Of a stretch of 64,000 nucleotides of DNA, positions 46,154 through 64,000 are shown in pieces. This stretch comes from Bacteroidota bacterium (lineage in GTDB: Bacteria > Bacteroidota > Bacteroidia > J057 > JAJTIE01), in contig JAJTIE010000030.1 of assembly GCA_021300195.1 (NCBI GenBank), positions 1 through 64,000 of the forward strand. The letters are read 5' to 3'. The first letter of the stretch is position 1. Each line of letters starts with the position of its first letter. The translations under genes and the position numbers were made by a program. The notes under the pieces were generated by a model, which saw only the letters and a program-made list of their open reading frames with translations, searched no databases and had not been told where the DNA came from.

Positions 46154-49100
46154 CTATTTCGCCTTTAGCAGCAGCTTTTGCCCCACCTTCAGCTCGTTGG
46201 AGGTAAGCCTGTTTAGCGCCTTCAGCTCAGATACGTCCATGCCATACTTCCGCGCGATGATGAAGAGCGACTCGCCCTCCTGCACGCGGTGGAAGCGGGG
46301 CCTGCGCTCGTACTGCCGAACGGGGTCTAGCCGGTCTTTCGATTCCAGTTCTTCCTCTGTGTCTAGCAGGGTGCCATCCAGGTTATCCTTCACATCGGCA
46401 TTGGGCTCCAGGCTCAGGTCTTCCTGTAGGAAGAAGAAGTCTTTCTCGGTTTGTGTCAGGTCTCGCTTCTTCAGGTTCTTGCGTACATAGTCTAGCAGTT
46501 CCTGGCGGTCTGGCAGCACCTTGTACACCTGTATGGAGAATCTGGGGTCGCGCGGGAAGCGCGAGACGGACATGGCAATCTTGCTGCCATCGGGGCTAAA
46601 CACGGCGTAGTAGCCATTAGCATCATGGCCGTCGTAGGTGGCCAGGTGCACGTAGCTGCGGGCATCCCACAGGCGGGCGGTATGGTCGTCGCTGCTGGTA
46701 AGGATATGCTTGCCGGTGCTGCTGAACTCGGCATGGTACACCGGCCCGCCATGTGCCCCCACCCCTTTCAGCTCACCCAGCATCTTGCCGTTGGCCGTAC
46801 TCCACACTTTCGAGCTGAAGTCGGTGCTGCTGGTTACCACCTTCTTATTGTCGGCACTGAAGGCGGCGTGCAGCACAGCGGCCTCGTGCCCCTTCAGCCT
46901 ACTGCGGATGTTGCCATTCACGCCGTCCCAGATGATGGCGGTTTTATCTTCGGACGTAGTTACCACCATACTGCCGTCGGGGCTGAAGGTGGCAAAGGTA
47001 ACGGGGCTGCCGTGGCCCCTCATATCGGCCAGCAGGGTTCCACCCTCGGCTTCCCACAGCTTCACCATCCCATCTGCCCCGGTGGTTACCAGGCGGGTAC
47101 CCTGGGGGTTGAAGGCTACATGCAGCACAGCCTCTGTGTGGCCCTGTAGCACGGCTATGCGTCCGCCATTCTCGCCGAAGAGGAGAGCCGTTTTATCCTT
47201 GCTGGCAGTAGCTACCCGGCGGCCATCCGCCGATAGGGCTGCGGAGGTAAGCAGATCCGCATGTCCGCGGAATACGGCCACTTCTCTGCCCGCCTCCAGT
47301 GCCCACAGGCGGGCGGTGAAGTCCTCGGCCAGGGTAACCACCTGGCGGCCGTCGCGGCTAAACACGGCATTGTCTACAATATGGGTGTGCTTATAGTAGG
47401 TGGTTTTCAGCTTGTTGGTACTCAGGTCCCACAGGCGGGCGGTTTTATCCATGCTTGTGGTAATCAGGTACTTGCCGTCGGGGCTAAACTGGTTGTACAC
47501 CACCTTATTCGTGTGGCCCAGCAGCATGTTTTCGGGCCGATCGCGGTTGTTCATCATCCGGTCGGCCGCGTTGTACAGGGCTCCCTCTGCCTCTGCCACA
47601 TAGGGTCTGCTGTCCTTGCCGCCTATGGTTTCGGGCATGGCGCGCAGGGCTATCAGCAGCCCCAGTTCATACTGGCCCTGCTGCACCTGTTCTTCGGTCA
47701 GGTTAGCCAGGAAGCGGCTCTGGTTTTCCTGAGCGCTGTTTCGCTGTACACGGGCCTCCTCCAGGGCCTCCTCGGCCTTTCGGCGTTGCAGCTCGGCTAT
47801 CTCGGTTTGCTCCTGGGCTACGCGTGCGCTCTCTTCGGCTTCCTTCTTGCGCAGTAGGGCTATGCGTGCGTTTTCTTCTGCCAGGGCTTTCTGCTTCTCC
47901 GCGTAGCGCTTGCGTTCTTCTGCCGTTATGCGTTCGCGGCGCGCTACCTTTTCTTGCATTTTGGCTTGCAGCAGGTTTATCTCGGCTATCAGCGTTTGTC
48001 GGTCGGCCTTGGCGCGCTGTAGCTCGGCCAGGGTTTTCTGGCGTTCGGCCTCTTTCCGCTGGTTGTCGACCTCTGTTTTTTGGGCAATAGCCAGTTGTTC
48101 TTTCTCCTTGGCTATCTCGGCCTGCTGTAGGGCAAAGATGGTCATGGCTATGGCTGCCAGCAGCAGGGCCAGGATGACGACCAGGGCAAAGATGGCGGCC
48201 CTGCGCTGCCGTTCCAGCTTTTCCTGGCTTAGCAGCAGGAACTCGTCCAGATCCTCCAGATAGAGCTCGGCCTGCTCGGTCACATCCATCTCCGGCAGGA
48301 TCTCCTCCGGTGCTATGTAGCGGCGTATCCAGGCCGTGGTGGGCCGGGTATCCTCATACCAGGTGCTGAAGTAGCTGTAGGTGCCTCGGTTCAGCAGGTA
48401 CTTGGGCCGGCAGTCGTGGTCTAGCCAGCGGTTTAGCTGCACCTTTACATCGGCATAGGTAGCCACGCGCTTATGCTCGCGCTCTGCCCATTCTATCAGT
48501 TTGTCCCAGTTTCGTATCAGGGCCTCGTGGGTAATGTCTAGCACCACGCTGGGGGCCAGGTCATAGGGCTCGGGCTTTTCGGGGTCTATGTAGGGCTGGA
48601 TAAAGGTATTGCCCGGCTCGCGGAAGATGTTGAGCACCCGGCCCACCTTCAGGTAGTCTACCTCATCGTTGCCAATCAGGTCTGCAATCTCCTCCAGGGT
48701 CATGCGGTTCCGCACGGCCCGGTTTTCGTCTATCTTGGTCAGGCCGGTAAAGGCATAGCGGATGACCTCCTGTGCTTCCTCTTTGGTAATCTTGTCGTCG
48801 TGGCGTGCATTGTAGTACTCGTGCGCCACGGCATACAGCAGGTTGGCATGCCGGTTCAGGATGTTGCGCAGGGCAGGCTTGGCATACAGCTCGCGTGTTT
48901 CTTCGTTCAGCTTGCTAAACCAACGCTGATAGTCTTCTACCTCGGCCCTGGGCAGCTTCAGCTCTGCCAGGCCGCCCACCTTGGCATAGTGTATCAGGTC
49001 CAGCTCTTCCTTGCCCGCGTCTGCCTGCGTCCATATCTGGTGCAGGGCGTGCTGTAGCACCGGCAGCTGGTCCAGGCCGTCGCCCAGGTCATTCAGTATA

Positions 49101-50854
49101 CGCTGGCTCAGGCGCACGCTCAGCCTATTGCCATTCAGGTATGCGGGCGCATCTATTACCTCCTGTATCTCTTCGCGCTTTAGCCTGGGCACAAAGTAGG
49201 TGGCATTGCCAATCAACTCGGCAAAGCCGCGAAATGCCACGCACTGGCCGATGAAGTCGGACCGCATGGTGAAGACCACATAGACAGGCAGCCCCTCCTG
49301 GCGGGCTATGCGGATAGTCTCCAGCAGTACGTTTACTGTAATCTGGGCTGTGGGGCTAGCCACACCATCGCGGTAGTTCTCGGTATTGGTAAAGAATTCC
49401 TCAAACTGGTCTACCAGTATCAGCAGGTTGGCCGCCTGGCGGCGCATCATTTTTCGGGTCTCCTCATCGCCCTCCAGATACTCATTGCTGGTAACGTCGC
49501 AGTACAGGTCGCTTTTTTTGTACAGGTCCACTAGGGCCGAGAAGCCGTAGCTCAGGGCACTCTCCACCTCGTCGGGGTTGCGCAGGCGCAGTTCTTTGCC
49601 GATGGCGATGCTGAGGTTTCGCAGGGGCTGCCGCTCGGGCCGGAAGTCGGCCACCGCCCACTTGCTAAAGCTGGTAGACAGGAAGCCCCCCTTGAGGCTG
49701 GGAACCAGGCCGGCAAAAATGAGCGAGGATTTCCCGTCGCCAGAGGAGCCGGTTACCATCACAAACTTCTCCTCGCCCAGCATGCGCAGGATGGTGTCTA
49801 CGTGCCTTTCGCGCCCTTTGAAGAAGATGGATTCATCTTCGTTGAACGGGCGCAGGCCGGTGTAGGGGCAAAAACTGGTTTCGGTAATGCGGCCGGTTTC
49901 GGCCACCCGGGCGTGCACGGTGGTAATGGCCGACAGCAGGTTGCGCTTCTTAACCACCTCCAGCAATATCTGCGGTGCACGAAAGCGCAAGAAGCGGTTT
50001 CGGCGCGGCTCATCTTCGCCAATCAGAAGGAAGGGATTGTTTGACGAGGCACCGCCTACCACCTTCCACATCTGTTTCACAAAGCTGATGGCCCAGTCTG
50101 AAGACTCTTTGAAGTAGATGACTGTAAGGCGTGAACGGATGATCCGGCCCTGGGCTTCTTCCTTGTAATCCACCTCCGACTCTGGCACCACCGTTAGCGT
50201 AGTAACCCGCAGGCTCTCGCTCAGCTTCTCTATCGTCTCGTAGCAGTCTGCCGCATCCTGTATGTTGCTGATGAAGGCGAGGTCGTACTCTTTTTTGATG
50301 ACCTCCTTCTGGCCGATGCGCTCCAGAAAGCCCTTGAGGTCCTGAATGAAATCGGAGGCAGAATTGACATTGGAGAACATCATGTCCTCCGTCAGGTGGT
50401 TCTGGATAAAGTTGACCAGCTCCTGCTGCTCGCCTAGCAGCAGCAGCCCCTCCAGGGGCAGCTGCCAGAAAAACACCTTGAAGCTGCCGCCCGTCATGCG
50501 AGACTGGCCGATGGCTACCTCGTACTGGTATCGGGTGTGGCTTACGCTAGAGTCTGCATGCAGGGTACGGCCATACTCGCCGCCTAGCATGATGACGGCA
50601 AAGTCGGCCCGGCGCACATAGGCCTCCGTCTTGTCGCGCAGCTCCTGGTCGGTCTCATAGCGCTCATCCAGGGCCAGCACCTCATAGCCCGCTTTTTGCA
50701 ACATAATGCCAAAGTCGGCCCGGCGCGCCCCTATGTCCTCGGTGGTCCAGGCCAGGAAGACCACGGGCTTTTTGGCCTGGCCCCGGGCCTCTGCCCCCTG
50801 TGCCTGGCTGGCACCAGCCTGGTCGTTTACGAGAATAGATTCCGGATCATTCAT
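46154..50854 (-). CDS. Membrane STAND NTPase: TIR/DUF4062-like N-terminus, nSTAND1, coiled coil, WD40, LysM
   Basis: 1,566 residues. Residues ~30-118 form a DUF4062/TIR-like Rossmann fold (VVFLAWTTEDIGARRADFGI) and ~188-300 look like a second such fold. A linker YTGLRPFNEDESIFFKGRER leads to an nSTAND1-type NTPase (~325-790): Walker A GSSGDGKSS 369-377, Walker B LILVDQFEEFF 478-488. One transmembrane helix at ~886-909, then a long charged coiled coil (~910-1045), eight WD40 repeats (~1110-1446) and a LysM domain (~1521-1565: FHRVQEGESLFIIARKYGMD). With a single membrane crossing, WD40 and LysM would be on the opposite side from the NTPase, probably periplasmic. Family: STAND proteins are ligand-triggered switches, many antiviral. 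Single gene with its own terminator. Confidence 0.88.
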   Translation of the reverse strand: MNDPESILVNDQAGASQAQGAEARGQAKKPVVFLAWTTEDIGARRADFGIMLQKAGYEVLALDERYETDQELRDKTEAYVRRADFAVIMLGGEYGRTLHADSSVSHTRYQYEVAIGQSRMTGGSFKVFFWQLPLEGLLLLGEQQELVNFIQNHLTEDMMFSNVNSASDFIQDLKGFLERIGQKEVIKKEYDLAFISNIQDAADCYETIEKLSESLRVTTLTVVPESEVDYKEEAQGRIIRSRLTVIYFKESSDWAISFVKQMWKVVGGASSNNPFLLIGEDEPRRNRFLRFRAPQILLEVVKKRNLLSAITTVHARVAETGRITETSFCPYTGLRPFNEDESIFFKGRERHVDTILRMLGEEKFVMVTGSSGDGKSSLIFAGLVPSLKGGFLSTSFSKWAVADFRPERQPLRNLSIAIGKELRLRNPDEVESALSYGFSALVDLYKKSDLYCDVTSNEYLEGDEETRKMMRRQAANLLILVDQFEEFFTNTENYRDGVASPTAQITVNVLLETIRIARQEGLPVYVVFTMRSDFIGQCVAFRGFAELIGNATYFVPRLKREEIQEVIDAPAYLNGNRLSVRLSQRILNDLGDGLDQLPVLQHALHQIWTQADAGKEELDLIHYAKVGGLAELKLPRAEVEDYQRWFSKLNEETRELYAKPALRNILNRHANLLYAVAHEYYNARHDDKITKEEAQEVIRYAFTGLTKIDENRAVRNRMTLEEIADLIGNDEVDYLKVGRVLNIFREPGNTFIQPYIDPEKPEPYDLAPSVVLDITHEALIRNWDKLIEWAEREHKRVATYADVKVQLNRWLDHDCRPKYLLNRGTYSYFSTWYEDTRPTTAWIRRYIAPEEILPEMDVTEQAELYLEDLDEFLLLSQEKLERQRRAAIFALVVILALLLAAIAMTIFALQQAEIAKEKEQLAIAQKTEVDNQRKEAERQKTLAELQRAKADRQTLIAEINLLQAKMQEKVARRERITAEERKRYAEKQKALAEENARIALLRKKEAEESARVAQEQTEIAELQRRKAEEALEEARVQRNSAQENQSRFLANLTEEQVQQGQYELGLLIALRAMPETIGGKDSRPYVAEAEGALYNAADRMMNNRDRPENMLLGHTNKVVYNQFSPDGKYLITTSMDKTARLWDLSTNKLKTTYYKHTHIVDNAVFSRDGRQVVTLAEDFTARLWALEAGREVAVFRGHADLLTSAALSADGRRVATASKDKTALLFGENGGRIAVLQGHTEAVLHVAFNPQGTRLVTTGADGMVKLWEAEGGTLLADMRGHGSPVTFATFSPDGSMVVTTSEDKTAIIWDGVNGNIRSRLKGHEAAVLHAAFSADNKKVVTSSTDFSSKVWSTANGKMLGELKGVGAHGGPVYHAEFSSTGKHILTSSDDHTARLWDARSYVHLATYDGHDANGYYAVFSPDGSKIAMSVSRFPRDPRFSIQVYKVLPDRQELLDYVRKNLKKRDLTQTEKDFFFLQEDLSLEPNADVKDNLDGTLLDTEEELESKDRLDPVRQYERRPRFHRVQEGESLFIIARKYGMDVSELKALNRLTSNELKVGQKLLLKAK

Positions 50855-62286: not shown

Positions 62287-63390
62287 TTAGCGCTCGGGGC
62301 TGTTGCGCTCTTCTACGCTGAACACCTCTACTTCCTCCTCCTCCTTTCCGCGCAGGCGGATGGCCCCCATGCTTTCCAGTCGGTAGTTTTCCCAGTTCAG
62401 GCCGGTGCGCCTGGCCCGCCGGAAGCTCTCCAGCACGGCGCGGGTAACCAGGAAGTCTACGCCCAGGGGCTTGCACTGGTCCAGTATGCGGCTGCCGGTA
62501 TTGATTACGTCGCCGTGGAATACAATTTCCTTTTTGGTATCGCCCACCTCGCCCACCACTACCTGGCCACTGTGCAGGCTAGCGCGAAAGCCGGGCACAA
62601 AGCCATACTTCTGCTGGTACTTGGCACCCAGCCGGCGTATGCGCCTGCGGCAGCGGAAGAAGCTGCGGATGGCATAGCCCTTGTACCGGGCATACTCCTT
62701 GTGCCATACCACAATCACCTCGTCGCCCACGTACTGGTATATCTCGCCCTCATGCCGGGCTATCACTTCGTCCAGGTCGTAGAAAAACTCGTTCAGAAAT
62801 TCGTGGTACTTCAGGTTGCCCAGCTGCTCGGCTATGGCTGTGCTATCTTTTACATCCAGAAACATGACTACCCGAAACTCTTCGCGCGGGCTGTGGTACT
62901 TGCCGGTGATGTAGTTGTAGAAGCGCTCGGGGCTGAGGGTACGGCTGATCTGCCACACAAAGTTGGTAATGAAGGAGACCAGGATGAGGAGCACAACGGC
63001 CACACGTGGGCTATGGCCGTATTCGGAAAAATGAAAGCGCAGGAATGCCTGCCAGCTGGCAGGCTGCTGCAGCACATAGGTGGCCACCCAGAACCCCAGC
63101 CAGGCAAAGGCGAAGGCAAGAACCAGGAGGATAAAGGTGCGCGTAAGGAGGACGAGCAGCAGCGGCCACTTGCGCATCTGTCGCCGTAGCACAAAGAGCT
63201 CGATCAGGATATTGAGCAGGCCGAAGAGCAGGCCCGACTCCAGCGCGGCCTGGTAGCGGGCGCGCACATCGGGGCCATCGGGCTGGCCCAGCAGGGTAAG
63301 CCAGGCTACAAACAGGTGAAATGCCACCCAGATGCCCAGTACGATGAGGAGGGTGCCCCGGTTTTTACGAAGTATGAAGCCGACGCGCAT
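62287..63390 (-). CDS. Membrane class III nucleotide cyclase
   Basis: 367 residues from ATG 63390 (MRVGFILRKNRG). Four transmembrane helices (~12-34, 52-68, 77-107, 128-148), then a class III cyclase domain (~165-330). Metal-binding Asp in FLDVKDST (D179) and YVGDE (D223); the Asn and Arg of the transition-state pair appear in GDVINTGSRI (N297, R301). The usual substrate-specifying Lys position is Gln219, so nucleotide preference is uncertain. Overlaps the ppk 3' end by 26 bases and is therefore probably co-translated with it. Confidence 0.88.
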   Translation of the reverse strand: MRVGFILRKNRGTLLIVLGIWVAFHLFVAWLTLLGQPDGPDVRARYQAALESGLLFGLLNILIELFVLRRQMRKWPLLLVLLTRTFILLVLAFAFAWLGFWVATYVLQQPASWQAFLRFHFSEYGHSPRVAVVLLILVSFITNFVWQISRTLSPERFYNYITGKYHSPREEFRVVMFLDVKDSTAIAEQLGNLKYHEFLNEFFYDLDEVIARHEGEIYQYVGDEVIVVWHKEYARYKGYAIRSFFRCRRRIRRLGAKYQQKYGFVPGFRASLHSGQVVVGEVGDTKKEIVFHGDVINTGSRILDQCKPLGVDFLVTRAVLESFRRARRTGLNWENYRLESMGAIRLRGKEEEEVEVFSVEERNSPER

Positions 63391-64000
63391 CGCGCAGTTT
63401 TTTTCGAAGATACGCATAGGTCTTCAACTGAGACCGGATAATGCGGGCCCGGGCAGGACGCTGCACATAGGGGTTCTCGCCCAGCTGGCCCAGCAGGCGC
63501 GCGCGCGCGTTATCCTGTAGCTGGATCCGGATGATGTCGATCACCTCCTGCTGCAGCACCGGGTCCTTGATGGGGAAGGCGCACTCCACCCGGTGATCCA
63601 GGTTTCGGCGCATCAGGTCCGCACTGCTCAGGTACACCCGGGATGCACCGCCGTTGCCAAAGATGAAGACGCGGGTATGCTCCAGAAATCGGTCTACAAT
63701 GCTGATGGCGCGTATCCGGCCCTGCAGGCTGGGCAGGGTGGGGTCCAGGCAGCAGATGCCGCGGATAATCAGGTCTATCTGCACCCCGGCCTCGGCAGCG
63801 CGGTACAGGCGGCGGATCATCTCCCGGTCTTCCAGGCTGTTCATTTTCAGGATCATCCAGGCCTTTTGCCCCTGGCCGGCCAGGGCCTGCTCCGCTTCTA
63901 TCAGTTCGTACAGGCGGTTTCGCATCTGGTTTGGGGCTACCAGCAGGTCTTCGTAGCGGTGGGTTTTGTGCTCGATCAGGAAGGTGAAGATCTGCCGCAC
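63365..64000 (-). CDS. ppk: Polyphosphate kinase 1, C-terminal part (5' end outside window)
   Basis: 212 residues are visible and the frame is open at the right edge. PPK1 makes polyphosphate from ATP. The visible part is the C-terminal catalytic region: LKMNSLEDREMIRRLYRAAE, IRGICCLDPTLPSLQGRI, DRFLEHTRVFIFGNGG and YLSSADLMRRNLDHRVE, with the second active-site His in FLEHTRVF. Family knowledge: processive at the membrane or in the cytoplasm. The cyclase gene follows with overlap. Confidence 0.93.
   Translation of the reverse strand: MRQIFTFLIEHKTHRYEDLLVAPNQMRNRLYELIEAEQALAGQGQKAWMILKMNSLEDREMIRRLYRAAEAGVQIDLIIRGICCLDPTLPSLQGRIRAISIVDRFLEHTRVFIFGNGGASRVYLSSADLMRRNLDHRVECAFPIKDPVLQQEVIDIIRIQLQDNARARLLGQLGENPYVQRPARARIIRSQLKTYAYLRKKLRDARRLHTS

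What the first reader, a model, noticed from the sequence alone, without database searches (positions are those of the whole stretch)
46154..50854. STAND NTPase with a membrane helix and C-terminal LysM: a possible peptidoglycan-sensing switch
Seen: DUF4062/TIR-like folds, nSTAND1 with intact Walker A/B, one transmembrane helix at ~886-909, long coiled coil, eight WD40 repeats and a well-formed LysM at the very end. Known: nSTAND1-WD40 proteins are common and many STAND proteins act in antiviral or developmental signalling; LysM binds peptidoglycan. I do not know a described STAND family that ends in LysM. Inference: cytoplasmic effector/NTPase held by the membrane, with the periplasmic WD40-LysM end reading the cell wall, e.g. 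wall damage by phage lysins or rival toxins.
Basis: partly seen in the sequence, partly recalled or inferred. Interest (0 to 1): 0.85.

Follow-up and report, generated by a model that had tools for sequence, protein, structure and literature searches.

The report
Membrane STAND receptor ending in LysM
A large bacterial switch protein of the kind used in innate immunity is predicted to cross the inner membrane on a rigid rod and end in a cell-wall-binding domain; because related bacteria keep this layout as an ordinary single-copy gene, it looks like a built-in cell-wall-linked receptor rather than a mobile anti-virus gene, though its trigger and its output are unknown.

Summary
Domain and structure predictions give two tandem TIR-like domains (the first is DUF4062), nSTAND1 with intact Walker motifs, one strong transmembrane helix, a 137-residue Ala-heptad rod, an eight-bladed WD40 propeller and a well-formed LysM. 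It is not a one-off fusion: 14 of 16 distinct full-length relatives of this fused form end in LysM, and the fused form is one clade. The hot-spring family f50 carries the gene in 12 of 12 genomes. Basic cytoplasmic flank and cysteine-poor C-terminal half favour a cytoplasmic switch with rod, propeller and LysM in the periplasm. First, the DUF4062 domain, whose relatives are NADases (Swarozyc, TEP1), lacks the catalytic Glu, as does the second TIR-like domain, so no enzymatic effector is recognisable. Second, most other relatives are split into a catalytically intact TIR (with or without cyclase) protein plus nSTAND1-TM genes, without LysM. Neighbours are housekeeping genes; viral contigs hold no relative. 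Best reading: a wall-tethered transmembrane STAND receptor for envelope state. That LysM is the sensing element, and what the output is, remain inference.

The parts
46154..50854 (-). Whole gene: DUF4062/TIR-like tandem - nSTAND1 - TM - coiled-coil rod - 8-bladed WD40 - LysM, 1566 aa
   Evidence: ORF listing and translation, Pfam, orthologues of the same length
50300..50767 (-). TIR-like domain I, DUF4062 (residues about 30-185); catalytic Glu replaced (R108; Q110 nearly invariant)
   Evidence: Pfam E=8.1e-9; profile hit to KpSwz DUF4062 structure 10wc, E=3e-4; column counts; AF2 pLDDT 91
49880..50299 (-). TIR-like domain II (residues about 186-325), second beta/alpha sandwich, no Glu at W+3
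   Evidence: AF2 model; alignment columns 253-260
48962..49867 (-). nSTAND1 NTPase core (residues 330-631)
   Evidence: Pfam E=1.4e-69, same coordinates
49724..49753 (-). Walker A, TGSSGDGKSS (residues 368-377)
   Evidence: GDGKSS invariant in six relatives and in 16
49397..49426 (-). Walker B, LLILVDQFEE (residues 477-486)
   Evidence: V-D-Q-x-E-E invariant in six relatives and in 16
48200..48961 (-). Helical C-terminal part of the STAND module (residues 632-885)
   Evidence: second nSTAND1 stretch and alignment
48137..48193 (-). Single transmembrane helix IFALVVILALLLAAIAMTI (residues 888-906), N-in orientation
   Evidence: hydropathy 3.07; K/R 4 before, 2 after; helix at the same place across the family
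47720..48130 (-). Ala-heptad coiled-coil rod (residues 909-1045), 137 aa, about 20 nm if one straight helix
   Evidence: length 137 in 14 of 16 relatives, 144 in 2; Ala in one register, p about 8e-10; no Pro or Gly
47531..47719 (-). Helical connector between rod and propeller (residues 1046-1108)
   Evidence: AF2 model helices
46520..47530 (-). Eight-bladed WD40 beta-propeller (residues about 1109-1445)
   Evidence: AF2 model, 8 blades, pLDDT mostly 90+; Foldseek E=2e-29 to ODA16 and match to eight-bladed Tako8
46301..46519 (-). Tail helices, then disordered linker (residues 1446-1518)
   Evidence: pLDDT below 50 for most of residues 1479-1515; lowest conservation of the protein
46157..46300 (-). 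LysM domain (residues 1519-1566)
   Evidence: Pfam E=5.5e-14; phmmer to LytE and other cell-wall endopeptidase LysMs; present in 14 of 16 full-length fused relatives

Best explanation
It is a single-pass inner-membrane STAND receptor tied to the cell wall. The N-terminal pair of apparently enzymatically dead TIR-like domains and the nSTAND1 ATPase sit in the cytoplasm. One helix crosses the membrane. A fixed-length alanine-heptad coiled coil carries an eight-bladed propeller into the periplasm, and the terminal LysM holds peptidoglycan through a flexible linker. A change in the wall (fragments, damage, altered spacing or load), or a ligand on the propeller, would move the rod, release the STAND switch, and let it assemble so that the TIR-like platform recruits a separate partner. 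Shown by sequence or prediction: domain order, TM helix, rod, propeller, LysM, conservation, loss of the catalytic Glu. Inferred: periplasmic topology, wall binding. Speculative: that wall state is the signal, and the nature of the output.
For: Domains and motifs. TM helix with basic N-terminal flank throughout the family. C-terminal half cysteine-poor: 3 Cys in 2573 aa against 24 in 3532 aa before the helix over four lineage representatives, Fisher p=7e-4. Heptad rod of fixed length, 137 aa, or 137+7. Propeller and LysM models; LysM closest to cell-wall endopeptidases such as LytE. LysM in 14 of 16 full-length fused proteins, none detected in the split relatives. The fused form is one clade (SH-aLRT 98). 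Core gene in family f50 (12 of 12 genomes) and present in 6 of 22 genomes of the window's order. Dead TIR-like domain.
Against: Topology rests on prediction. No wall binding or NTPase assay exists. Two fused relatives (L026, L027) lack LysM, so the module works without it. WD40 propellers are usually cytoplasmic. A single LysM usually binds weakly (general knowledge). No conserved neighbour points to a wall pathway, and no effector was identified.
Confidence: 0.55

Rival explanations
1. LysM is only a tether. The propeller or an unknown periplasmic protein is the sensing element, and LysM merely parks the receptor at the wall.
For: Two fused relatives without LysM keep rod and propeller. LysM hangs on a disordered, poorly conserved linker, so it is mechanically uncoupled.
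Against: LysM is kept over deep divergence in 14 of 16 proteins and is about as conserved as the propeller (mean pairwise identity 0.51 against 0.53).
Confidence: 0.25
2. It is an anti-phage (abortive infection) STAND: the periplasmic part reads phage injection or lysin damage and the cytoplasmic TIR-like pair kills the cell, as DUF4062 proteins of the Swarozyc kind do by NAD depletion.
For: DUF4062 and many STAND proteins are defence components (PMC13174449). Split relatives carry a catalytically intact TIR or a cyclase.
Against: The catalytic Glu is absent in the DUF4062 domain (2 of 48 keep it, window has R) and in domain II. No relative in viral contigs; plasmid and phage hits are the split or generic nSTAND type. 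Flanking genes are housekeeping. Single-copy core gene in f50.
Confidence: 0.13
3. The C-terminal half stays in the cytoplasm, the hydrophobic helix is a membrane-surface or buried helix, and LysM binds something other than peptidoglycan.
For: WD40 propellers are mostly cytoplasmic in characterised proteins (general knowledge); no secretion signal at the N-terminus, so insertion must rely on the internal helix.
Against: Helix hydropathy 3.07, a helix at the same place across nearly all of about 100 relatives, positive-inside flanks, cysteine depletion. Split WD40 relatives end in a conserved cysteine pair that could be a disulfide.
Confidence: 0.07

Closest known systems
Human TEP1 / NWD1 (DUF4062-NACHT-WD40) and bacterial Swarozyc KpSwz (DUF4062-AUX), PMC13174449
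   Same: Same order of DUF4062, STAND NTPase and WD40 as TEP1/NWD1; DUF4062 homology tested here (Pfam and PDB profile hit to KpSwz)
   Different: Catalytic Glu missing; nSTAND1 rather than NACHT; a second TIR-like domain; transmembrane helix, long rod and LysM added; KpSwz has an AUX domain in place of STAND and WD40
Split Bacteroidota relatives found here: (cyclase)-TIR-DUF4062-like protein plus one or two nSTAND1-TM genes (e.g. L049, L028, L059)
   Same: Homologous TIR-like pair and nSTAND1 module, TM helix at the same place, same N-in flank
   Different: Two or three genes, intact TIR with W..EF, other C-terminal repeats, no LysM
iSTAND ternary systems with peptidoglycan-binding domains (PEGA, OmpA, PASTA, Sel1) after a TM segment, Kaur et al. 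2020, PMC7159879
   Same: Idea of a STAND-linked conflict system that touches the cell wall through a domain outside the membrane
   Different: There the wall domain is on effector components of a vWA-MoxR-iSTAND system with an inactive STAND; here an active-looking nSTAND1, WD40 and LysM are in one chain
APAF-1
   Same: STAND switch with a WD40 sensor end and an N-terminal adaptor domain
   Different: Cytosolic, no membrane helix or wall-binding domain, different STAND clade

Membership tests
nSTAND1 STAND NTPase | Match to the nSTAND1 profile over its cut-off with intact Walker A and B | tested here: met
   E=1.4e-69, 236 bits against cut-off 27.1; motifs invariant
DUF4062 / Swarozyc-TEP1 TIR-like NADase | DUF4062 fold and sequence match | tested here: met
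   E=8.1e-9 over cut-off; KpSwz structure is the best PDB profile hit; TIR/NDT-like fold
DUF4062 / Swarozyc-TEP1 TIR-like NADase | Catalytic glutamate (KpSwz E97) | tested here: not met
   Aligned position is R108 in the window; Glu in only 2 of 48 family members; neighbouring Q110 is Q in 47 of 48. So it is not filed as an NADase
LysM peptidoglycan-binding domain | LysM sequence and beta-alpha-alpha-beta fold | tested here: met
   E=5.5e-14; AF2 fold; best PDB match LytE
LysM peptidoglycan-binding domain | Binds peptidoglycan or chitin-type glycans | not testable with these tools
   needs sacculus pull-down or binding assay
Single-pass membrane receptor, N-in/C-out | One strong TM helix, positive-inside | tested here: met
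   predicted topology only
Anti-phage defence system | Located in defence islands or mobile elements, patchy | tested here: not met
   housekeeping neighbours; none in viral contigs; 12 of 12 in family f50. Distribution in the window's order is partly patchy, 6 of 22
iSTAND ternary system (Kaur 2020) | MoxR and vWA partners encoded next to an inactive STAND | tested here: not met
   Walker motifs intact; no conserved neighbour at all beyond very close relatives

The most novel reading that the evidence does not exclude
A bacterial transmembrane counterpart of NOD-like receptors that monitors the cell's own wall: peptidoglycan held by LysM on a fixed-length periplasmic rod controls an inside STAND switch whose TIR-like domains have become an adaptor platform, kept as a housekeeping envelope-integrity receptor.
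Probability: 0.3. Interest if true: 0.85.

Novelty: new variant of a known kind. Interest (0 to 1): 0.6.

Why it matters
STAND proteins are the switch at the heart of plant, animal and bacterial innate immunity, and the characterised ones mostly sense ligands inside the cell. A clade in which the switch is wired through the membrane to a peptidoglycan-binding domain, and kept as a core gene, would give a directly testable case of a STAND protein serving envelope surveillance. It would also show how a TIR/NADase effector module can lose its enzyme activity and become an adaptor. The TEP1-like order DUF4062-STAND-WD40 makes it a bacterial comparison point for the vault protein.

Tried and rejected
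A Pfam TIR_2 search of selected genomes found nothing, but it also missed the known TIR of G034, so that negative was discarded; a protein query with a working positive control found no such TIR in ten genomes with the fused gene. Conserved gene neighbours: none beyond close relatives. Viral contigs: no relative. NADase activity from DUF4062: rejected for lack of the Glu. The 'Ignavibacterium' copy (L038) as evidence of transfer between phyla: rejected as probable contamination (nearly identical to L025; a genome of the phylum with 13% contamination carries a matching C-terminal stretch). PADLOC hit HEAT-ARM_XIII covers only the WD40 stretch and was not taken as evidence. Literature: no paper in the held library describes a STAND-LysM protein; subscription papers are mostly not held.

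Full report
OBSERVATION. The stated coordinates hold one open frame of 1566 codons on the minus strand, ATG at 50854, stop at 46154. Pfam finds nSTAND1 (E=1.4e-69), WD40 repeats and a terminal LysM (E=5.5e-14), and DUF4062 at residues 32-114 (E=8.1e-9). Walker A and B are intact and invariant in relatives. The only strongly hydrophobic stretch is 888-906. AlphaFold2 on a 47-row alignment gives two tandem beta/alpha TIR-like domains for the N-terminus (mean pLDDT 91; Foldseek finds single TIR or nucleoside-deoxyribosyltransferase-like domains). On a 16-row alignment it gives an eight-bladed propeller, a disordered linker and a beta-alpha-alpha-beta LysM for the C-terminus (mean pLDDT 88; Foldseek E=2e-29 to WD40 proteins).

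NOT A ONE-OFF. Proteins of the same length and order occur in six of 22 genomes of the window's order, and a scan of 84,980 species brought 73 related loci, nearly all Bacteroidota. All proteins in which the TIR-like pair is fused to nSTAND1 form one clade (SH-aLRT 98, 19 rows). Of 16 distinct full-length fused proteins, 14 end in LysM; L026 and L027 stop just after the propeller's tail helix. A LysM profile built from the clade finds none in the split STAND relatives. One hot-spring Bacteroidia family (f50, two genera) has the gene in 12 of 12 genomes, single copy in all but a fragmented assembly, and all nine complete proteins that group there in the tree have LysM. Gene order around it is not conserved, so the gene itself is being kept. 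In an even sample of 396 genomes of the phylum only the window's and one contaminated genome carry this C-terminal half: it is a clade feature, not a general one.

TOPOLOGY. A helix lies at the same place in nearly all relatives; the flank on the NTPase side is more basic (fused family: typically 4-7 K/R before, 2-3 after, within 15 residues). Only L027 fell under the hydropathy threshold. With an ATPase inside, this predicts N-in and C-out. Cysteine is depleted after the helix: over one representative of each of four lineages 3 in 2573 aa against 24 in 3532 aa (Fisher p=7e-4; only four lineages, and cytoplasmic propellers can also be cysteine-poor). Split relatives with WD40 ends carry a conserved tail cysteine pair, compatible with a disulfide. 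These are predictions, not measurements.

ROD. Between the helix and the propeller connector lie 137 residues in 14 of 16 proteins and 144 (one heptad more) in the two others. Up to 19 alanines sit in one heptad register (p 1e-9 to 1e-13 across members), with no proline and at most three glycines. As one straight helix this is about 20 nm (1.5 A per residue), of the order of a periplasm's depth. A fixed length changing only by a heptad suggests a mechanical or distance role; that is inference.

NO RECOGNISABLE ENZYME AT THE N-TERMINUS. A 2026 preprint (PMC13174449) shows that DUF4062 proteins are TIR-like NADases with a catalytic Glu (KpSwz E97) and points out the DUF4062-NACHT-WD40 order of human TEP1 and NWD1. 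The family profile hits the KpSwz structure first in the PDB (E=3e-4). By that alignment E97 falls on R108; in 48 family members the position is Q, K or R in most and Glu in two, and the neighbouring Q110 is Q in 47 of 48. Domain II has the invariant D-W-A but no Glu at W+3. In contrast, the TIR of the split relatives has W..EF in 32 of 32, some also with a nucleotide cyclase domain. So in the fused clade the effector enzyme seems to have been lost or moved elsewhere, and no related TIR gene was found in ten of its genomes (positive control passed). The N-terminus is best read as an adaptor or assembly platform. The position of the catalytic residue rests on a profile alignment, not on a superposed structure; the mapping of E97 onto the PDB chain (position 82, construct starting at residue 16) is my own reading of the printed alignment.

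CONTEXT. Near the gene are a TPR lipoprotein-like gene, a subtilase with a sorting-type C-terminus, large secreted proteins, enolase and M16 peptidases. No defence genes were recognised among flanks tested (weak PADLOC hits there are generic domains such as subtilase, helicase or cyclase). Viral contigs hold no relative. Plasmid hits are split or generic nSTAND types, phage hits short nSTAND matches.

MECHANISM AND LIMITS. The simplest account is a wall-linked transmembrane STAND receptor with wall or periplasmic input and inside assembly as output. Not shown: wall binding, direction of signalling, trigger and partner. The flexible linker before LysM (pLDDT under 50) makes a simple pulling mechanism less likely and keeps the static-tether rival alive. 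The anti-phage reading is weakened by the missing catalytic residues, the context and the core-gene distribution, but not excluded.

KNOWN OR NEW. The parts are all known, and STAND-linked wall-binding domains were reported in iSTAND ternary systems as separate effectors (PMC7159879). I found no description of a STAND protein ending in LysM, within a library that lacks most subscription papers. I therefore call it a new variant of a known kind.

Noticed in passing
L049, L028, L059, L072, L081 and about 25 further loci: Widespread Bacteroidota/Balneolota gene set: a (nucleotide cyclase)-TIR-DUF4062-like protein, with the TIR Glu intact in 32 of 32, followed by one or two tandem nSTAND1-TM proteins of about 1350 aa. 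The examples tested matched no PADLOC system apart from the cyclase part; it may be an undescribed TIR/cyclase STAND system.
   Followed up: partly
Hymenobacter tibetensis plasmid NZ_CP094670.1, 1460-3939: A plasmid-borne relative in two annotated genes, matching query residues 33-848 at 44% identity.
   Followed up: no
L056, L136, L142-L147: Split WD40-type relatives end in a conserved tail with two cysteines (C..L.RN....EW........YEKTC), which may be a periplasmic disulfide.
   Followed up: partly
window 62287-63417 (-): Nucleotide cyclase gene with matches to Pycsar cyclase models, about 11 kb from the STAND gene; in split relatives a cyclase domain is fused to the TIR.
   Followed up: no
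L038 (CALHAB010000210.1), G733: A copy labelled Ignavibacterium is nearly identical to L025; G733, a genome of the phylum with 13% contamination, carries a matching C-terminal stretch, so it is probably a misbinned contig.
   Followed up: partly
L053, L055, L028 and other split loci: The two tandem nSTAND1 paralogues separate into two sister clades, suggesting an old duplication and perhaps a heteromeric receptor.
   Followed up: no
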